Source: Natrinema gelatinilyticum (GTDB lineage Archaea; Halobacteriota; Halobacteria; Halobacteriales; Natrialbaceae). Taken from it: 64,000 nt of DNA. Position numbers and translations under genes: made by a program. Shown here piece by piece: positions 48,720 to 56,642 of the stretch. The stretch spans positions 1,612,001 to 1,676,000 of the forward strand of contig NZ_CP100756.1 of assembly GCF_024266705.1 (NCBI RefSeq), in the 5' to 3' direction. Numbering within the stretch: the first letter of the stretch is position 1; every line of letters begins with the position of its first letter. The notes beneath the pieces are model-generated. The model made no database searches. It was not told where the DNA came from and was given only the letters and a program-made list of their open reading frames with translations.

Positions 48720-49730
48720 TCACTCGAGAGCGTCCCAGCCCGGCGTTTCGGGTGCACCGCGTTCGACCTCGACGGCGTCGGCGACGGCCGGCGATGGAAG
48801 GGCTCCGTCGGCCTCCCGGCAGCGCTCGTGCCAGTCGCGGATCACCGGGCCGACCCACGATTCGCTTTCCGCCGTCGGTTCGGCGTCTTCACCTTCGATC
48901 ACTCGCGCTTTCGCCCACTCGTAGTGGTGATCGGAAATCGCGAGCGTGCCGGGACTCGAGGCGGCGGCGACCGCGATCAGTTCGGCGCGATCCCGCCGCG
49001 TCAGTTCGCCCGCCGCCGTCCGATCGACGATTCCCTCGAGATCAGCCGGCCGTGGATGGGAGAACAGCTTCGCACCGAGCGCCTGCGAGCCGAGCAGCAG
49101 TCCGTCCGTGTCGTCGTACTCGGTCTCGAGCAGTCGGTCACCGCCGACGGCTGCTTCGACACGTTCGCACTCGGTTTCCTGCTCGAGCGCGAGATTGTAC
49201 GCGGGATACGAACCGCACTCGTCCGGAAAGAGATCGCTCTCGTGGATCCGACACTGGAGGGTCGTTGGATCGAGGAAGACACAACTCGGAAGCCACGTCG
49301 GCTCCTCACGTCCAAACGGGGCGACCGGCTTCGGCGGCTTGCGAAGGCCCACGAAGAACGCGGGCCGACCCGCGATGGCGGCGACGGTGTGGCCGTCAAC
49401 GCCCACTCCCTCGCTCTCGTTGCGGGCCGCCCAGAATCGCGGGGTGAGCGCATCGGCCATCCCCGCCTCGAGGAACGCCCGCACCTCGTCGCGGGTCAGC
49501 GCGACGAAGTTCGGATCGTCGTCGAACGGTTCCCGTGACGAGGCGTCACCGGTCGCACTATCGATCGGATCGCGCTGTCGACGATGCCGGCGCCCGGAAT
49601 CGCGGTCGCTGCTGCTCGCGTTATCGCCCCCGTTCTCGCCGTCTTTCGCCTCGGTCGATTCCGAGCCGTCCTCGAGCAGCGGACGCCAGTCCATGCAACA
49701 GCCGGCACAGCCCTCGCAGTTCACCTCCAT
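48720..49730 (-). CDS. YkgJ-family cysteine-cluster protein
   Basis: A 336-residue protein of the YkgJ/CxxCxxCC family. It begins with MEVNCEGCAGCCMDWRP, the hallmark Cys cluster, followed by a long Ser/Asp/Arg linker (about residues 20-60, a halophile-specific insert), then WLPSCVFLDPTTLQCRIHESDLFPDECGSYP with further conserved Cys. The family is thought to bind a metal, perhaps zinc or an Fe-S cluster; the function is not established. The C-terminal part (SDHHYEWAKARVIEGED) is helical. The ATG at 49730 places the cluster at the very N-terminus as is usual. Confidence 0.85.
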   Translation of the reverse strand: MEVNCEGCAGCCMDWRPLLEDGSESTEAKDGENGGDNASSSDRDSGRRHRRQRDPIDSATGDASSREPFDDDPNFVALTRDEVRAFLEAGMADALTPRFWAARNESEGVGVDGHTVAAIAGRPAFFVGLRKPPKPVAPFGREEPTWLPSCVFLDPTTLQCRIHESDLFPDECGSYPAYNLALEQETECERVEAAVGGDRLLETEYDDTDGLLLGSQALGAKLFSHPRPADLEGIVDRTAAGELTRRDRAELIAVAAASSPGTLAISDHHYEWAKARVIEGEDAEPTAESESWVGPVIRDWHERCREADGALPSPAVADAVEVERGAPETPGWDALE

Positions 49731-49862
49731 ACCGATCCGTACGATGCTATCGCGTATAACCGTATGCGGACACCGACCTCGAGCACCCGATGAACGAACA
49801 CACGTCTCGAGCGCTGACTCCGCGGAGGAACGATTTTCACCGTTCGGACCCCATCCATACGC

Positions 49863-50108
49863 ATGTCGAAGGCTTCCTGTGACGGCTGCGGTCGAACGGT
49901 AACGGTCTCGGGCGGGATCGCCAACCTCTGGTCGTTCGGGACGGACGCCGGCACCGTCGGGACCGCGATCTCCCTGGAACTCGAAGACGGGACGAAACAT
50001 CTCCTGTGCTATCCCTGTCTCGAGGCGATACCCGACCACCCGACCGAAGCGGACGTCGAACGACTCGAGTGGAACGACGAGGAATCCTCGCGACTCGGCA
50101 CTCGGTGA
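49863..50108 (+). CDS. Small zinc-ribbon haloarchaeal protein (DUF7561-like)
   Basis: An 81-residue protein with CDGCGRTVTVSGG near the start and HLLCYPCLEAIP near residue 47; the two CxxC pairs should bind zinc. The segment between them (IANLWSFGTDAGTVGTAISLEL) is beta-rich. The end is acidic (PTEADVERLEWNDEE). It resembles a conserved haloarchaeal family I recall as DUF7561. Function unknown. Confidence 0.7.
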   Translation: MSKASCDGCGRTVTVSGGIANLWSFGTDAGTVGTAISLELEDGTKHLLCYPCLEAIPDHPTEADVERLEWNDEESSRLGTR

Positions 50109-50408
50109 ACCGGTCGGCGTACGGATCCGCCATCGTCGGATAGGTTGTCACATGGTTGACTGTTCGTTCAGAGCGCACATCGGCCTGGATCGACTGCTCG
50201 AAGAACTCCAACAAACGACCGAAGACTGATTCTGCCGGCCCACATCTCGGAACCGAGCAGGAGTGTTCGGGGGTATCTTCGCGGCTATCGAAGTTCGGAC
50301 CGACCGCCGCGCCCATAGGTAGTTTCGACCATCTGACGGACACACCGTGGGAGCGTAAACACGGTCGCGATCCGTTGTCAGAATCACAGCACACCCGCAG
50401 CCGTGAGC
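50109..50408. other. Intergenic region before the tRNA-like locus
   Basis: About 300 bp. A 25-codon frame (50152-50229, ending LEELQQTTED) is protein-like but too short to call; it might be the 3' remnant of a lost gene. Otherwise nothing recognised. Confidence 0.3.
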
Positions 50409-50496
50409 GGAAGGGGTGGGATTCGAACGCCACGAGGCATAATGCCGCCGCGGAACCAGGTGGCACCGCGGTGCTCTTCCGCTGAGCGACCCTTCC
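50409..50496 (-). tRNA. Abnormal tRNA-like gene, Gly(GCC)-like, possibly decayed
   Basis: On the minus strand GGAAGGG pairs with CCCTTCC as a 7-bp acceptor stem; GCTC-AGCGGAA-GAGC is a proper D arm; GTTCGAATC is the T-loop. But the anticodon arm is too long: CCGCG, then GTGCCAC (T33, GCC, A37 as in tRNA-Gly), then seven extra nt, then CGCGG. A GGCA-TTA-TGCC hairpin fills the variable region and the T stem has an extra C (GTGGCG versus CCCAC). The 88 nt thus resemble a tRNA with an insertion, a divergent tRNA or a tRNA pseudogene. No CCA is encoded. Confidence 0.5.
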
Positions 50497-50719
50497 GTAC
50501 CTCGTGCCGAGGACAGATTTCGTATTTGTAATCGGTCGGCTACCCGATCGATGGGCTCTCTGTGGCTCCCGTAGGGAATCGATACCACGCAGGTAGACGT
50601 CGGTTTCGACATCGCTCGAGCGCGTCCACGATCGACGTTCACTTCGCCGGGTACGCCGTCGCATCACCTGGCGCGACAGTCCGCAGCATTTAGGACCTGG
50701 CCGCGTGGTGAATCGAACG

Positions 50720-52600
50720 GTGAACCCCGAGCGGATCTTCGAGGCGTTTCCCGCACCGAGTTATCGCGGGGCCCAGCAGCAGGCCCTCCGGGACATTCGC
50801 GGCGCGTTCGAGGCCGGCAACGACGTCGTACTCGTACGCGCCCCGACCGGGAGCGGTAAGTCGCTGCTCGCCCGCGCGGTGGCCGGGTGCGCCCGCCGTG
50901 CGGACGAGGGAGACCCCAGCGACGCGACGGGCGCGTACTACACGACGCCGCAGGTCTCCCAGCTCGACGACGTCGCGTCGGACGACCTGCTGGCCGATCT
51001 GAACGTCATCCGCGGCAAGTCGAACTACGCGTGCATCCTGCCCCACGAACGGAACACGCCGGTCAATCAGGCGCCTTGCGTTCGCGAGCGGGGGTACGAT
51101 TGCTCCGTGAAACACCGGTGTCCGTACTTCTCAGACCGGGCGATCGCATCGAACCGGGAAATCGCGGCGATGACGCTCGCGTACTTCATGCAGACCGCCG
51201 GAAGCGACGTCTTCCGGACCCGCGACGTCGTCGTCGTCGACGAGGCCCATGGCCTCGCGGAGTGGGCGGAAATGTACGCGACCATTCAACTGGGGCCGCG
51301 AACCGTGCCGTTCTGGGACGAGTTGCGCGTTCCCGATGTCGACTCGATCGAGCGAGCCGTCCGGTACGCCGAGTCTCTCGCGGGAACCTGTACGCGCCGG
51401 AAGGACGAATTGCTCGCGCAGGACTCGCTCTCTCCGGGCGAGGTGCGTGAACGCGACTGCCTTCAGGAACTCATCGGCGAACTCGAGTGGTTTGTCTCCG
51501 ACTTCCGCGATCCGGAGAGTCCGACGACGTGGCTGATCGACCAGGCCGACTGCCCCGCGAGCGCTCGAGGGACCGGCGATGGGGCTGACTCCCGTGCTAG
51601 CGGGCACGCGAACGACCCGCAGGGCGGTCCGCTGACGATCAAGCCGATGAACCCCGAGAAGTACCTGCAACACACCGTCTGGGACCGGGGCAACAAGTTC
51701 GCGCTGCTGTCGGCGACGATCCTCAACAAGGACGCATTCTGCCGGCAGGTCGGGCTCGATCCCGAGACCGTCGCGCTGATCGACGTTGAACACACGTTCC
51801 CCGTCGAGAACCGGCCGCTGTACGACGTCACACAGGGGAAGATGACCTTCGAGCGGCGGTCGGAAACGACGCCGAAGATCGCCCGAACGATCGTCCGACT
51901 CATGCAGCGCCATCCCGACGAGAAGGGGCTCATCCACGCCCACTCCTACGACATTCAGGAGCGCCTCGCGGACCTTCTGACCGACTTCGGCGTCGGCGAC
52001 CGGATCCGGGTCCACGACCGCGACGGTCGCGACGCCGCCCTCGAGGAATGGTCGGCTGACGACGACCCGGACGTCTTCCTCTCGGTGAAGATGGAGGAGG
52101 CGCTCGACCTCAAGGACGACCTCTGTCGCTGGCAAGTAATCTGCAAGGCGCCCTTCCTCAACACCAGCGACTCACGAGTCGCCCACCGCCTCGAGGAGGG
52201 TCAGTGGGCGTGGTACTATCGCACGGCGCTTCGGACTGTCATCCAGGCCTGTGGTCGAGTGGTCCGCGCGCCCGACGACCACGGGGCGACGTACCTCGCC
52301 GACTCGAGCTTGCTCGATTGCTTCGAACGCGCCCGGACGGACATGCCGGACTGGTTCGAAGCGCAGGTCGACCGCATGGTGCAACCGGATCTCCCGGCGT
52401 TCGAGCCACGTGCAGCGCTCGGCGACTCAGCCTCGAATTCGAGCGCGGGAACGCCGACGGGAACTGGACCGAACGGGCGCTCGAGCGGGAGCGGATCCAG
52501 CGATCGCGGCGGGACGGACGACGGCCCATCGCGATCCCACCGGTCGCGGCGTTCGTCACGCTCGAGCCCGCTTGCGGACGTCTGGGACACAGACGGGTAG
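50720..52600 (+). CDS. XPD/DinG-like DEAH-box DNA helicase with Fe-S domain
   Basis: Superfamily 2 helicase of about 626 residues. Walker A APTGSGKSLLA (about residue 42), Walker B VVVDEAHGLAEW, motif III-like LLSATIL and motif VI QACGRVVRAPDD are present. Four cysteines between motifs I and II (one in NYACILPHE, one in QAPCVRE, two in YDCSVKHRC) fit the 4Fe-4S domain of XPD/Rad3/DinG helicases. The C-terminal 55 residues are Ser/Gly/Arg-rich low complexity. I start it at GTG 50720 (NPERIFEAFPAP), 25-30 nt after a TATA-like ATTTA; GTG 50705 is the alternative. Role in DNA repair is inferred from family. Confidence 0.9.
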   Translation: MNPERIFEAFPAPSYRGAQQQALRDIRGAFEAGNDVVLVRAPTGSGKSLLARAVAGCARRADEGDPSDATGAYYTTPQVSQLDDVASDDLLADLNVIRGKSNYACILPHERNTPVNQAPCVRERGYDCSVKHRCPYFSDRAIASNREIAAMTLAYFMQTAGSDVFRTRDVVVVDEAHGLAEWAEMYATIQLGPRTVPFWDELRVPDVDSIERAVRYAESLAGTCTRRKDELLAQDSLSPGEVRERDCLQELIGELEWFVSDFRDPESPTTWLIDQADCPASARGTGDGADSRASGHANDPQGGPLTIKPMNPEKYLQHTVWDRGNKFALLSATILNKDAFCRQVGLDPETVALIDVEHTFPVENRPLYDVTQGKMTFERRSETTPKIARTIVRLMQRHPDEKGLIHAHSYDIQERLADLLTDFGVGDRIRVHDRDGRDAALEEWSADDDPDVFLSVKMEEALDLKDDLCRWQVICKAPFLNTSDSRVAHRLEEGQWAWYYRTALRTVIQACGRVVRAPDDHGATYLADSSLLDCFERARTDMPDWFEAQVDRMVQPDLPAFEPRAALGDSASNSSAGTPTGTGPNGRSSGSGSSDRGGTDDGPSRSHRSRRSSRSSPLADVWDTDG

Positions 52601-52795: not shown

Positions 52796-54052
52796 CTACT
52801 CGAAGCGCGCGTCGACGACGACGTGTTCGACCCCCGCGCTGTGACTCTTCACCCGCCGTTTCTCGAGGACCTCGAGTTCCCGCCCCGCATCCGTGCCGGC
52901 CGCTTCGAGGCGCTCGAGCGGCCGATCCCACAGAAGGGGTTCGGGGGTTGCTTCGTGATAGTGGACGATGCCACCGGGGACCAGCGCCTCGAGGGCAGCC
53001 GGGAGGAACTCGTGTGCCTCGTCGACTCGAGTCCCGTGGTCCATTTCGTCGGTGTCCGCGTCAGTCCCGCCAGAACTTCCGTAGTAACCCATGACGACGC
53101 GATCGGCCTCGAGTTCGCTCGCGAGAGCGCGGCAGTCGGTCATGTAGGCGTCGATCCGGTCGCCGACGTCGTTGAGCATCGCGTTCTCGAGTAGGGAGCG
53201 GAAGGCGGTCGGATTGATCTCGGTCGCGGTCACCCACGCGCCGGCTCTGGCCAGCGGCAGGGTGAAGTAGCCGATACCTGCGAACATGTCGAACACCCGT
53301 TCGTCAGCCACGGACTCGAGGTCGCCCATTCGAGCGCGTTCGGCCTGGTTTCCCGGTGAAAACATCACCGAGGCGGGATCGATCCCGTATCGCGTGCCGT
53401 GTTCCGTGTGGATCGTCTCCGTGTTTCGGTCGCCCGCGAGGTGTCGGGTGCGGGGTTCCCGGTAGGTTCCCGCTGGGCCGTCGTTCGCGATCCCCTCGTC
53501 GGCGAGGACGCTGTCGGCTTCCCCGTGTACCTCGAGCAACGCCTCGGCGAGTTCTGTCTCGTCCGGACAGCCCTCGGGAACCGTCACGACGATCACTGAC
53601 CCGATCACCGCCCAGGAGCTGGGTGCGGACTCGAGGTCCTCGTCGCTCCAGCCTCGGTCGGCGAGCAACCCCTCGAGATCCGGACCTCTGGGCTCGGGTT
53701 CGAGTTGGCGGACGACCTCGAGGACGCGCGTCTGGGTCGGCGGCTCCAAGACGGGGAGGGCGATCCGCTCGGGCCCCTTCTTACTGGTCGAAGACCCGTT
53801 CGTATCATCCGAGGGCTCCGCGCTGCTTCGCCCTCGTGCCTCACGCACGCGCCTCGACTCGTCGTAGATACCTTCGGCGCGCAACGACTCGATCGCCGTC
53901 TCGGCGCGCGGTTTCTCGACGATCGCCGCGAGCGGCGCGTCGGTCCCGGCTCGTTCGAGGACGCGGTCCGCCGCGGGTTCGAGACCGCGACGCGTCGTGT
54001 CATCGAAGTCGCAATCCGCTCCATCCGTGGACCGGTTTTCGTCCTCAGTCAT
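52796..54052 (-). CDS. taw2: Taw2-like tRNA(Phe) wybutosine-pathway transferase
   Basis: Class I SAM-dependent protein of 418 residues, Trm5/Taw2 family. The SAM motif is VFDMFAGIGYFTLPLARAG (about residues 255-275), then TEINPTAFRSLLENAMLN, and the late VVMGYYGSS and GGIVHYHEATPE. The HYHE motif and the GY-type motif in place of the Trm5 NPPY-like one point to Taw2, which transfers the aminocarboxypropyl group of SAM to 4-demethylwyosine at G37 of tRNA-Phe. A Trm5-type methyltransferase is the alternative. The ATG at 54052 overlaps the nmd3 stop by 8 nt, supporting an RNA-processing operon. Confidence 0.82.
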   Translation of the reverse strand: MTEDENRSTDGADCDFDDTTRRGLEPAADRVLERAGTDAPLAAIVEKPRAETAIESLRAEGIYDESRRVREARGRSSAEPSDDTNGSSTSKKGPERIALPVLEPPTQTRVLEVVRQLEPEPRGPDLEGLLADRGWSDEDLESAPSSWAVIGSVIVVTVPEGCPDETELAEALLEVHGEADSVLADEGIANDGPAGTYREPRTRHLAGDRNTETIHTEHGTRYGIDPASVMFSPGNQAERARMGDLESVADERVFDMFAGIGYFTLPLARAGAWVTATEINPTAFRSLLENAMLNDVGDRIDAYMTDCRALASELEADRVVMGYYGSSGGTDADTDEMDHGTRVDEAHEFLPAALEALVPGGIVHYHEATPEPLLWDRPLERLEAAGTDAGRELEVLEKRRVKSHSAGVEHVVVDARFE

Positions 54053-55217
54053 CGCTATCGTCGGGCAAAATGTGCACACCGGCGCGGCTCTTCAAGACTG
54101 GCACCGTTTCGGCGTCCGGGTCGAAGTACGCCGGCCGTGCGACGGTCTTCGCCTGGAACGTCTCGGGATCGAGTATCTGCACGGCGTTGTCGTCCTCGAC
54201 GGTGACGACCGTCGTCTTGACGGCGTCCTCGAGCGAGCCGAGTCTGTGGGCGTCGGGCGAGTTGCCCTCTTCGTAGCTCGCCTCGTAGCGCTCGCCAGTC
54301 GTGGCGCGGACCCCCTTTAAGTTGCCGCGGGCGCTGCGGACGATGACCGGGCCGTCCTCGTCATCGACGAGATCGATAACCTCGCCGGGCGTGTACGGCG
54401 GCAGGCGGACCGCGAACGTGACGCGGTAGACCTCGTTCCCGTCTTCGTCTTCCGTGACGAGTGTTTCGGCGTCGGTGACAGTGCCGCCGAACTCCTCGAT
54501 CATCTTGTTCGCGATCTTCTTGCCGATTTTGTTGGTCGAGACCTTGATGTTCAGCCCGTCGGAGGTCTCGTTCGTCTCGGTGACGAAGGCGTTCCGATCG
54601 CCCGTCGCCTCCATCTCGGCTACGATTCGGTTTGCGATTTCCTCGGCTCGTTCGGTTTCTTCGGTGGTCGGGGTGCGGTCTTCGGCGCGGATCTGGACGA
54701 TGCTGGCGTAGTAGTCGCCGGCGATCCGACCGCAGCGGGTGCAGGTCTGACGGGAAATCTTGACCGGTACCGTCACCTGCTCGTCGACCGGCGTACCGCG
54801 GACCACGCCTGTGAAGTAACAGTGCATCCGAATCGTGTTCTGGTCGACCTGCTCGGGCTCGATCTGCCAGGCGACGTCGGAGACGTCGACGTGGACGCCG
54901 AGCGCCTCGCTGACCTCTTCGATGGCGATGTCGGTGTAATCTTCCGCGCCGACGTCGACCCACCGATTCCCTCGGTAGACCGCCCCGCACTGCGAACAGA
55001 CGCGAACGTCGATCCGATCCGGCGCGTCCACGAAGTCGAAGTCATCGAAGTAACACGCATCGCAGAGTTCGACCTCGGCATCCGGCCGAAGCGGGTCGTT
55101 GGCGGCGCCGGTGTCACCCTCGGAGACGGCCCCGCCGGAACCACCGTTCGCGTCGCTCCTCGAGTGCTCGGGTACCGGATCCCCACACCGGGGACAGAAC
55201 GCACGCGACTCACTCAT
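54045..55217 (-). CDS. nmd3: Nmd3-family ribosome biogenesis protein
   Basis: Archaeal Nmd3 homologue (390 aa). Four zinc knuckles are visible: CPRCGDPVP, CDACYFDD, CSQCGAVYRG and CTRCGRIAGDYYASIVQIRA, the last followed by the family's conserved VQIR block. Then come the eIF5A-like and OB-type regions (GLNIKVSTNKIGKKIANKMI and PPYTPGEVIDLVDD). In eukaryotes it is the export adapter of the 60S subunit; in archaea it probably helps late 50S maturation. The first linker (residues 15-45) is Ser/Gly/Asp-rich. It leads an operon with taw2; an insertion sequence starts 46 bp upstream of its ATG and may have displaced its promoter. Confidence 0.92.
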   Translation of the reverse strand: MSESRAFCPRCGDPVPEHSRSDANGGSGGAVSEGDTGAANDPLRPDAEVELCDACYFDDFDFVDAPDRIDVRVCSQCGAVYRGNRWVDVGAEDYTDIAIEEVSEALGVHVDVSDVAWQIEPEQVDQNTIRMHCYFTGVVRGTPVDEQVTVPVKISRQTCTRCGRIAGDYYASIVQIRAEDRTPTTEETERAEEIANRIVAEMEATGDRNAFVTETNETSDGLNIKVSTNKIGKKIANKMIEEFGGTVTDAETLVTEDEDGNEVYRVTFAVRLPPYTPGEVIDLVDDEDGPVIVRSARGNLKGVRATTGERYEASYEEGNSPDAHRLGSLEDAVKTTVVTVEDDNAVQILDPETFQAKTVARPAYFDPDAETVPVLKSRAGVHILPDDSDD

Positions 55218-55263
55218 TGACCCTTGTTTGGGTTTCAGGGAGTTAAGCCACCCGTTCTCTCGT

Positions 55264-56642
55264 CTCGACAGTAGGTGCCGAACCTCCAAACAGATGCGTC
55301 CAGTTCTCGACCGCAGGGTCAAGATTAACCAGTCAACTAGTGTTCACTCCTTGAGCAAACACATTCATCAGACAATCAATTGACCGCAGAAGGGAATGAA
55401 TGTAGCCTTGCCAGTCGGCAGCAGCGTGCTGACCCGGGTCGGCCCGGGTCAGCCGCCGCACTCTCTGCTAACTGTCTGGAAGAGACAATACAAATAGCCG
55501 AAACAGGGCTGTCGAGACTGCCGGCCGGTCGGTCAATACTCGCTGCTCAACGAGAACCAGACACACCAGAATCCAAAGATTGTACAACGCCACAGCGAAC
55601 AGAAACTCGAACAGTCGCACCGCGAACGTCGGCGACGACGTTCGCGGGAGAAACTCTCCGATCTTCCGATAGGACGTCTCTATCCCCCAGCGACGGCGGT
55701 ACGCTTCCGCAAACGGTTCGGCGAACTCCACCGAGACGTCACAGTTCGTTACCAGACAGAACGAGTCGTCGTCCCGCGTTCGGTGCGGGACGACGACGAG
55801 TGTTACCGATATTCGTCCCGTCGGTGGTTGTTTCCGGACCATCTCGTAGTTGGTGACGAATGTCTCCTCGTCATGGGCGTCAAGCACGCGCTTGACGCCC
55901 GGTGTCTTCGGCGCGCGTACGACGAACCTGACGTCCAGATCAGCCAATGTTTGAACAAGTGAAACCCGGTAGAAACTCCTGTCGCAGTAGACGCGGTTGA
56001 TCTGGACGAACTGGCGAGCGATCTCGATGAGTCGGCGGATGGACTCCCGCAGCGTGCGGGAGTCATCCGCCTCGATCGATTCCCACGCCAGTGTCAGCCG
56101 AACCGCTGGATCGACGACACAGAGCGTCACAAATGCGTAGGCAAGGTTCGTTCCACGGTCTGGATTGATCGCACAGACGTGCGGTGTCTCGGCCGAGCCG
56201 TAGTAGAGCCACTCGTGAATATCGAGCGCGACGTCGACAGGACGAGCGAACGCCCGCTGCTGGCGGGCGTGAGCGAACGTGGCTGCCCGGACGCCATCGA
56301 ACTGGGCGCCGATGGCGTCCGGGCTTAGTCCACGAAGATGGTAGAGAAGCGATTTCGCGAGCGGACTCCGTTGCTGAAGGTCAATGTCTTCTCCTCGAGC
56401 GAGCTGCAGTTCTTTCGCGGTCGTATGGACAAACTCGCCGTCGAAGGCACTTCGAGCGAGGACTTTCTCAAAGTCCTCGCTCGAATACTGCCCGTTCGAT
56501 TTCGTCGCAAAATCGAGCCGCGTGAACAACAGAGAGGTAGCTGCACGAGATAGGTGTTTTGCCTCGGTCGCATGGATCATACTGTTGATTCGTCACCGAC
56601 GACGAAAACGACGACTTAGCTACTTCGGCACCTACTGTCGAG
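55264..56642 (-). mobile_element. Insertion sequence with DDE transposase, 1.38 kb
   Basis: Terminal inverted repeats of 19 bp match exactly: CTCGACAGTAGGTGCCGAA at 55264 and its complement at 56624-56642. Between them lies one intact transposase gene on the minus strand. Length and layout resemble the ISH3 group or other IS4-type haloarchaeal elements of about 1.4 kb. I found no clear target duplication by eye (left flank CTCGT, right flank TCGCG). The element sits 46 bp upstream of nmd3. Confidence 0.88.
55468..56580 (-). CDS. DDE transposase of the 1.38-kb IS
   Basis: A 370-residue transposase with an intact frame. The first Asp is in PVDVALDIHEWLYYG, the second in NRVYCDRSFYRVSL and the Glu in RRRWGIETSYRKIGEFLP: DDE triad with the Y-R spacing of IS4-like enzymes. 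The N-terminal 80 residues contain the DNA-binding part (SPLAKSLLYHLRGLSPDAIG). No frameshift is seen, so the element may still be active. Family within ISH3/IS4 superfamily not certain. Confidence 0.88.
   Translation of the reverse strand: MIHATEAKHLSRAATSLLFTRLDFATKSNGQYSSEDFEKVLARSAFDGEFVHTTAKELQLARGEDIDLQQRSPLAKSLLYHLRGLSPDAIGAQFDGVRAATFAHARQQRAFARPVDVALDIHEWLYYGSAETPHVCAINPDRGTNLAYAFVTLCVVDPAVRLTLAWESIEADDSRTLRESIRRLIEIARQFVQINRVYCDRSFYRVSLVQTLADLDVRFVVRAPKTPGVKRVLDAHDEETFVTNYEMVRKQPPTGRISVTLVVVPHRTRDDDSFCLVTNCDVSVEFAEPFAEAYRRRWGIETSYRKIGEFLPRTSSPTFAVRLFEFLFAVALYNLWILVCLVLVEQRVLTDRPAVSTALFRLFVLSLPDS

What the first reader, a model, noticed from the sequence alone, without database searches (positions are those of the whole stretch)
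50409..50496. tRNA-like gene with overlong anticodon arm
Acceptor stem, D arm and T-loop are clear, and the anticodon loop could read GCC (Gly), but seven extra nt sit between loop and 3' stem, a hairpin fills the variable region, and the T stem has an extra base. It may be a tRNA with a tiny intron, a new tRNA-like RNA, or a decaying tRNA left by an integration event.
Basis: seen in the sequence. Interest (0 to 1): 0.5.

Follow-up and report, generated by a model that had tools for sequence, protein, structure and literature searches.

The report
Anticodon-less tRNA-like RNA of salt-loving archaea
This salt-loving archaeon carries a gene for an RNA built like a transfer RNA but without a normal anticodon, and relatives of it are kept across many salt-loving archaea, so it is probably a working RNA with a job outside protein decoding rather than a broken tRNA.

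Summary
On the minus strand, window 50496 to 50408, lies a cloverleaf with a 14-nt anticodon loop (12 nt above a 6-bp stem), a hairpin in the variable region and one extra base in the T stem. A decaying tRNA or a small-intron tRNA is unlikely. It is in 29 of 29 genus genomes (genus inferred as Natrinema) and in 188 of 392 order genomes at E<=1e-9 (hand count); outside the order the best hit is 1.2e-9, and six checked hits there are tRNA-Ser. The acceptor, D arm, T loop and T-stem bulge recur throughout, partly because of how relatives were sought. The anticodon arm is a changing hairpin with co-varying pairs; its predicted tip loop has 7 nt in 3 of 116 distinct sequences. A promoter-like box starts 36-37 nt upstream in 29 of 29 genus copies. 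The genome has a separate intact tRNA-Gly(GCC). I conclude: a non-decoding tRNA-like RNA, widespread in haloarchaea, missed in this window by default ARAGORN and Rfam at gathering. Its task is unknown; first guess an amino-acid carrier outside translation, closely followed by a regulatory tRNA mimic. Expression has not been shown.

The parts
50408..50496 (-). tRNA-like RNA gene, 89 nt including discriminator G
50490..50496 (-). acceptor stem 5' strand GGAAGGG
   Evidence: same letters in 88 of 88 distinct rows of A3, but many rows were found with a pattern that fixes it
50473..50487 (-). D arm GCTC-AGCGGAA-GAGC
50448..50471 (-). anticodon arm: CCGCGG / 12 nt TGCCACCTGGTT / CCGCGG; no 7-nt anticodon loop
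   Evidence: all 6 pairs of this helix show changes on both sides among relatives
50436..50446 (-). variable-region hairpin GGC-ATTAT-GCC
50416..50433 (-). T arm GTGGCG-TTCGAAT-CCCAC with one bulged base
   Evidence: 2 of 5 pairs without and 5 of 5 with a 1-nt bulge in 116 of 116 distinct sequences
50429..50429 (-). bulged C of the T stem
   Evidence: sequence
50408..50415 (-). acceptor 3' strand CCCTTCC and discriminator G; no CCA encoded
   Evidence: CCA directly after it in 0 of 148 loci
50523..50533 (-). promoter-like box GATTACAAATA, 27-37 nt upstream of the RNA
   Evidence: GATTACAAA within 80 nt upstream in 29 of 29 genus copies, starting 36 or 37 nt before the RNA

Best explanation
The gene makes a stand-alone, non-decoding tRNA-like RNA. 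It keeps the tRNA parts that processing and charging enzymes grip (acceptor stem, D-loop/T-loop elbow, discriminator). It has lost the anticodon: the arm is only a structural hairpin free to change. A one-base bulge in the T stem, the arm that elongation factors bind (recalled), would keep it out of the ribosome. Shown: recurring body, co-varying arm, T-stem bulge, wide distribution in the order, conserved box upstream in the genus. Inferred: transcription from its own promoter, trimming by RNase P and tRNase Z, CCA addition, action in trans as a tRNA mimic. My mechanism of choice, about 0.3 on its own, is that it is charged by a synthetase that does not read the anticodon (SerRS first) and hands the amino acid to a non-ribosomal reaction.
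For: Kept in 29 of 29 genus genomes; mean majority identity per column 0.96 in the RNA (28 copies of 89 nt), 0.82 at -40 to -20 where the box lies, 0.55-0.71 in the rest of the 80 nt upstream, and 0.77, 0.60, 0.47, 0.46 going downstream to +60. Family: 116 of 125 genomes at E<=1e-5, 105 of 125 at 77 bits or more (hand count of that list). Order: 209 of 392 at E<=1e-6, 188 at E<=1e-9 (hand count). In 88 distinct aligned sequences 95.9% of pair cells pair (shuffled mean 89.8); 9 pairs change on both sides against a shuffled mean of 5.5 (1 of 500 shuffles as high); covariation score 0.173 against 0.080 (0 of 500) and at most 0.026 for slid structures. T-stem bulge in 116 of 116 distinct sequences; of 44 ordinary tRNAs of the genome 42 have 5 contiguous pairs, one 4, one not parsed. 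Predicted tip loop of the anticodon arm 3-15 nt, 7 nt in 3 of 116, with U in second place in 2. Base 48 is C in 147 of 148 loci. Variable arm GGC-N5-GCC and discriminator G of the window's copy resemble tRNA-Ser; tRNA-Ser(TGA) is the best other match in the genome.
Against: No transcript seen. Not found at E<=1e-9 in 204 of 392 genomes of the order (some genomes incomplete and filters strict), so hardly essential. Alignment A3 was fitted to the structure, which favours it, and related sequences can beat shuffles without structure (the tool's own caution). For the charging idea: discriminator A in 20 and C in 1 of 116 distinct sequences, the variable hairpin is not predicted in some relatives such as L185, and the lead of tRNA-Ser over tRNA-Arg is small (35.4 against 34.5 bits). 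The single-sequence fold of L185 is not a cloverleaf and not better than shuffles (39 of 200 as good). No partner protein found.
Confidence: 0.75

Rival explanations
1. A regulatory tRNA mimic: the uncharged RNA binds a tRNA-handling protein (RNase P, tRNase Z, CCA enzyme, a synthetase or a modification enzyme) and tunes it, or serves as a scaffold inside a regulatory RNA, as proposed for Bacillus cereus tRNA-Other.
For: Body recurring, anticodon arm free, patchy presence in the order. Bacillus cereus tRNA-Other is reported not to work in translation and suggested to act within a larger regulatory RNA (PMC3399842, abstract).
Against: In the genus the flanks are much less conserved than the RNA and the box starts 36-37 nt upstream, which speaks against a larger conserved RNA. 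No target known.
Confidence: 0.3
2. An intron-bearing tRNA, Gly(GCC) or Thr(GGT), spliced to a 7-nt anticodon loop.
For: The loop can be read as G-U-GCC-A-C plus 7 nt; ARAGORN with introns proposes Thr(GGT) with a 7-nt intron.
Against: Of 40 relatives' stretches ARAGORN (one of them, L182, an ordinary tRNA-Ser) with many different anticodons and nothing in 13. Relatives with 3-5-nt tip loops leave no room for an intron at the usual place. 14 nt cannot hold a bulge-helix-bulge with a loop (minimum 17, my count). A scan for that motif is unspecific and so decides nothing: 78 of 116 sequences, the window's copy included, against a shuffled mean of 60. Intact Gly(GCC) and Thr(GGT) genes exist.
Confidence: 0.04
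3. A decaying tRNA or an integration remnant.
For: Extra bases look like decay; in relatives 3'-end copies lie downstream in 22 of 145 loci.
Against: Co-variation, recurring body, conserved box, 29 of 29 genus genomes; the window holds one copy of the 3' end only.
Confidence: 0.03
4. Kept mainly as a DNA attachment site for integrating elements, not for its RNA.
For: Its 3' end recurs downstream in 22 of 145 loci and upstream in 0 of 145, up to 5 mismatches allowed; ordinary tRNA genes show the same (4 of 36; 8 of 39 in the own genome).
Against: This would not explain co-variation in the anticodon arm or the promoter-like box; 123 of 145 loci have no such copy. The reverse complement of the 3' end, used as a control, also matched 8 times in the same downstream stretches, so some weak copies may be chance.
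Confidence: 0.07

Closest known systems
Bacillus cereus tRNA-Other (pseudo-tRNA; PMC3399842, abstract seen)
   Same: tRNA-like, not used in translation
   Different: Reported beside one genomic island and as part of larger RNAs; the present RNA is spread over haloarchaeal families, with a T-stem bulge, a changing anticodon arm and poorly conserved flanks
Archaeal tRNA-Ser (class II)
   Same: Extra arm of GGC-N5-GCC form and discriminator G in the window's copy; best other match in the genome is tRNA-Ser(TGA); six hits checked among the seven best places outside the order are all tRNA-Ser
   Different: No anticodon loop, bulged T stem, different acceptor letters (GGAAGGG), discriminator A in some relatives
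Intron-bearing archaeal tRNAs (such as tRNA-Gln(TTG) with a 30-nt intron in this genome by ARAGORN)
   Same: Overlong anticodon region
   Different: The extra stretch is 7 nt, too short for a bulge-helix-bulge by my count; no anticodon is kept in relatives
mascRNA and tRNA-like ends of long RNAs (recalled, no call)
   Same: tRNA fold used for processing rather than decoding
   Different: Here a promoter-like box stands close to the 5' end in the genus, so no long upstream transcript is indicated

Membership tests
canonical elongator tRNA | cloverleaf with D arm, T loop and 7-bp acceptor | tested here: met
canonical elongator tRNA | 7-nt anticodon loop with U33 | tested here: not met
   14-nt loop in the window; predicted 7-nt tip loop in 3 of 116 distinct sequences, U in second place in 2
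canonical elongator tRNA | 5-bp T stem without bulge | tested here: not met
   bulge in 116 of 116 distinct sequences
intron-bearing archaeal tRNA | bulge-helix-bulge at the splice sites | tested here: inconclusive
   does not fit at the usual site by length; the motif scan is unspecific (78 of 116, shuffled mean 60)
tRNA pseudogene or integration fragment | no selection on structure; [quoted passage not shown]
   co-variation; one copy in the genome
tRNA-Ser | long extra arm and discriminator G73 | tested here: inconclusive
   met in the window's copy; discriminator A in 20 and C in 1 of 116, extra hairpin not predicted in some relatives
non-decoding tRNA-like RNA (pseudo-tRNA in the tRNA-Other sense) | transcript that does not enter translation | not testable with these tools
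   no expression data held
Rfam families other than tRNA | score above gathering cut-off | tested here: not met
   none; only RF00005 is above its cut-off (31.5, cut-off 29)

The most novel reading that the evidence does not exclude
A haloarchaeal RNA family derived from a tRNA, charged with an amino acid by a synthetase that ignores the anticodon, barred from the ribosome by a T-stem bulge, and used as a dedicated amino-acid donor for a non-ribosomal reaction.
Probability: 0.25. Interest if true: 0.85.

Novelty: new variant of a known kind. Interest (0 to 1): 0.62.

Why it matters
A tRNA-like RNA kept over many haloarchaeal genera, yet missed in this window by default ARAGORN and by the Rfam gathering search, would be a widespread component of these cells outside decoding. 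It would give a direct handle on the question of what tRNA-shaped RNAs do when they do not translate, in organisms (Haloferax, Haloarcula, Natrinema) that can be grown and, for Haloferax, genetically changed. The one-base T-stem bulge also makes a clear prediction about how a cell keeps a tRNA look-alike out of the ribosome.

Tried and rejected
Gly(GCC) or Thr(GGT) tRNA with a small intron, a decaying copy and an integration fragment were rejected for the reasons given under the rivals. A bulge-helix-bulge scan was too unspecific to use. An alternative pairing of GCAC with GUGC around the anticodon stem co-varies once (C to U with G to A in L030, L033, L034) but is broken in L035 and L036, so it was not pursued. 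The phylum-wide search with model R2 gave many hits outside the order; the 6 checked are ordinary tRNA-Ser, so I do not claim the RNA outside the order. A viral-contig scan with an exact pattern and blastn searches of plasmids and phages with the window's RNA gave nothing; blastn with this one copy would not find distant relatives. Neighbour genes gave no partner: SdhA (succinate dehydrogenase) upstream on the same strand in 42 of 116 loci (33 of the 42 within 600 nt, others up to 4 kb), a helicase upstream on the other strand in 45 of 116, neither in 29; I read these as two inherited positions. Eight literature searches showed no paper on this RNA in the lists returned, several of which were capped; subscription journals are mostly not held. 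A first extraction script found nothing because of a wrong length range and was corrected. The first flank alignment mixed both strands and is not used for a number; one search replaces it.

Limits of the counts: loci L190-L305 were found with a pattern that fixes acceptor, most of the D arm and T loop, so constancy there is not independent; 39 of 40 stretches L150-L189, found with a covariance model, have the same acceptor letters (the other, L182, is an ordinary tRNA-Ser). The 148 loci are 29 of the genus, these 39, and the first 80 of the 116 pattern loci; they give 116 distinct sequences. Loop sizes are from minimum-energy folds of the middle part alone. Alignment A3 holds 91 sources that I chose from the loci to avoid near copies; all 91 gave one match. 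An earlier alignment A2 held two matches on the wrong strand and was not used. Model R1 also hits ordinary tRNAs at around 43-54 bits, so weak rows are mixed; two weak family rows that I fetched look real (L168, L189). Of, 21 rows between 1e-6 and 1e-9 were set aside. For one search I fetched 40 of the 44 ordinary tRNA genes; 39 could be parsed. The gene neighbourhood clustering used 100 of the 116 pattern loci plus three genus loci.

Full report
What is there. The window lies in a haloarchaeon; its place is G000:C1:1612001-1676000. On the minus strand, 50496 to 50408, the sequence reads as a cloverleaf: acceptor GGAAGGG/CCCTTCC with discriminator G, D arm, anticodon arm CCGCGG-12 nt-CCGCGG, variable hairpin GGC-ATTAT-GCC, T arm GTGGCG-TTCGAAT-CCCAC. 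Default ARAGORN and Rfam at gathering miss it in the window, and the whole-genome Rfam tRNA search does not list it at E<=10; with lax filters on a short stretch the tRNA model gives 31.5 bits. It folds into this shape better than shuffles.

It is conserved. A blastn search with 211 bases finds it in 29 of 29 genomes of the genus; the 29 copies comprise 22 distinct sequences. Mean majority identity per column is 0.96 in the RNA (28 copies of 89 nt; one copy is 88 nt), 0.82 at -40 to -20, 0.71 at -20 to 0, 0.55-0.64 further up, and falls from 0.77 to 0.46 over 60 nt downstream. GATTACAAA stands upstream in 29 of 29 copies, starting 36 or 37 nt before the RNA. A covariance model of ten of the 22 sequences (R1) finds the RNA in 116 of 125 genomes of the family at E<=1e-5; 105 of 125 reach 77 bits or more by my count, and weaker rows include ordinary tRNAs. 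In the own genome it scores 116.4 bits and the next best is tRNA-Ser(TGA) with 35.4. A wider model (R2) finds 209 of 392 genomes of the order at E<=1e-6, of which 188 at E<=1e-9 by hand count. Of 294 genomes drawn from the phylum (about 240 outside the order, by handle numbers), no match outside the order is better than 1.2e-9; six hits checked among the seven best places there are tRNA-Ser. A pattern scan of genome contigs (one genome for each of 84,980 species) gives 116 stretches; the titles are haloarchaeal genera such as Natrinema, Natrialba, Haloarcula, Haloferax, Halorussus, Haladaptatus, Halobellus and Halorientalis, some MAGs named after haloarchaeal groups, and one MAG titled only Euryarchaeota archaeon (L190).

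Constant body, changing arm. In 88 distinct aligned rows the acceptor pairs never vary, while all six pairs of the anticodon helix, two of the variable hairpin and one of the T stem show changes on both sides; the whole structure beats shuffled and slid controls. The alignment was fitted to the structure and its rows are related, both of which favour such a result. The anticodon arm ranges from a 5-bp stem with a UUCG loop (L178) to long hairpins (L156, L186). The predicted tip loop has 7 nt in 3 of 116 distinct sequences and U in second place in 2. The T stem pairs 2 of 5 without and 5 of 5 with a one-base bulge in 116 of 116; the bulge is at one of two places (61 and 55 sequences). Among the 44 ordinary tRNAs of the own genome found by the Rfam search, 42 have five contiguous pairs, tRNA-Leu(CAA) has four and tRNA-Val(TAC) could not be parsed. 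CCA is encoded in 0 of 148 loci. Discriminator: G in 95, A in 20, C in 1 of 116.

Not a normal tRNA of the set. The genome has 44 tRNAs over the cut-off of the Rfam search, among them an intact tRNA-Gly(GCC) (L077) and tRNA-Thr(GGT) (L007). Not among the 44 are Trp(CCA), Arg(CCG), Pro(CGG) and a third CAT tRNA. In Haloquadratum, tRNA-Trp and one tRNA-Met carry introns (PMC3119063, passages), so such genes may simply be missed here. I did not search further for Arg(CCG) and Pro(CGG).

Place in the genome. In the window the next genes are a Rad3/DinG-like helicase (50705-52597 +; below the curated NCBIfam cut-offs, Helicase_C_2 in Pfam), a DUF7561 protein (49863-50105 +) and a DUF7531 protein (48723-50039 -). 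Over the 116 pattern loci a homologue of this helicase lies upstream on the other strand in 45, SdhA (succinate dehydrogenase flavoprotein; TIGR01812 E 8.8e-105 for a piece) upstream on the same strand in 42 (33 of them within 600 nt, others up to 4 kb), and neither in 29. I read this as two inherited positions of one old gene; no shared neighbour points to a task.

How it may work. Shown is a structure that looks selected, has kept what processing and charging enzymes hold and dropped what decodes. Inferred is an RNA made from its own promoter and processed like a tRNA. The T-stem bulge would hinder elongation-factor binding (knowledge of EF binding to the T stem, recalled). A carrier of an amino acid for a non-ribosomal reaction is my first choice (about 0.3), with SerRS the first candidate because it does not read the anticodon (recalled) and because the extra arm and discriminator of the window's copy look like tRNA-Ser. 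The A discriminators and the missing hairpins of other relatives speak against a strict Ser rule. A regulatory mimic is about as likely.

Novelty. Non-decoding tRNA-like RNAs are known, such as tRNA-Other of Bacillus cereus (PMC3399842, abstract). I saw no paper on this RNA in the lists of eight searches, several of them capped; of PMC8450103, PMC9897764, PMC7921747 and PMC3119063 I saw passages only. I file it as a new variant of a known kind.

A side finding. Downstream of the tRNA-like gene, 22 of 145 loci (0 of 145 upstream) hold one or two further copies of its last 20 or so bases, with up to 5 mismatches allowed; the reverse complement, as a control, matched 8 times in the same stretches. 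Most units between copies are about 90-165 nt and fold as hairpins. In 18 of 27 units the left arm matches the inverse complement of the T loop in at least 9 of 11 bases; in the other 9 it is 7 or 8, which shuffles often reach. Read by eye, the left arm often follows the local T-loop letters. Ordinary haloarchaeal tRNA genes show the same: 4 of 36 and 8 of 39 in the own genome, of which one at +750 and one with four mismatches and no left arm are doubtful. The window's gene has none. Partial tRNAs next to full copies have been reported for Haloferax gibbonsii LR2-5 (PMC7921747, passage).

Noticed in passing
L193, L220, L237, L238, L257, L258, L290, L302 and others; own-genome tRNAs L356, L358, L367, L369, L382, L383: Hairpin units of mostly 90-165 nt downstream of tRNA and tRNA-like genes; each ends with a copy of the tRNA's own last 20 nt and in many the left arm is the inverse complement of its T loop. 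They resemble attachment-site cassettes; I did not search for a recombinase.
   Followed up: partly
116 pattern loci: SdhA lies upstream on the same strand in 42 of 116 loci (33 within 600 nt), in several genera such as Haloarcula, Haloferax and Halobellus; a helicase lies upstream on the other strand in 45 of 116.
   Followed up: partly
window 52799-54079 (-): A TRM5/TYW2-family protein (PF02475) lies about 2.3 kb from the RNA; by eye, an ORF cluster found in 12 of 103 scanned loci is the same protein.
   Followed up: no
L255, L264, L272 (Halegenticoccus soli); L193, L220 (Halobium salinum); L238, L275 (Halorientalis persicus); G111, G112, G114: Some genomes carry two or three copies of the tRNA-like gene at different places; those compared have different anticodon arms (L158 and L159, L255 and L264).
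   Followed up: partly
window 55471-56580 (-): DDE transposase of the PF01609 family.
   Followed up: no
window 54048-55322 (-): NMD3-family protein next to the TRM5/TYW2 gene.
   Followed up: no
L105 (G000:C1:2539347-2539449): tRNA-Gln(TTG) of this genome carries a 30-nt intron (ARAGORN).
   Followed up: no
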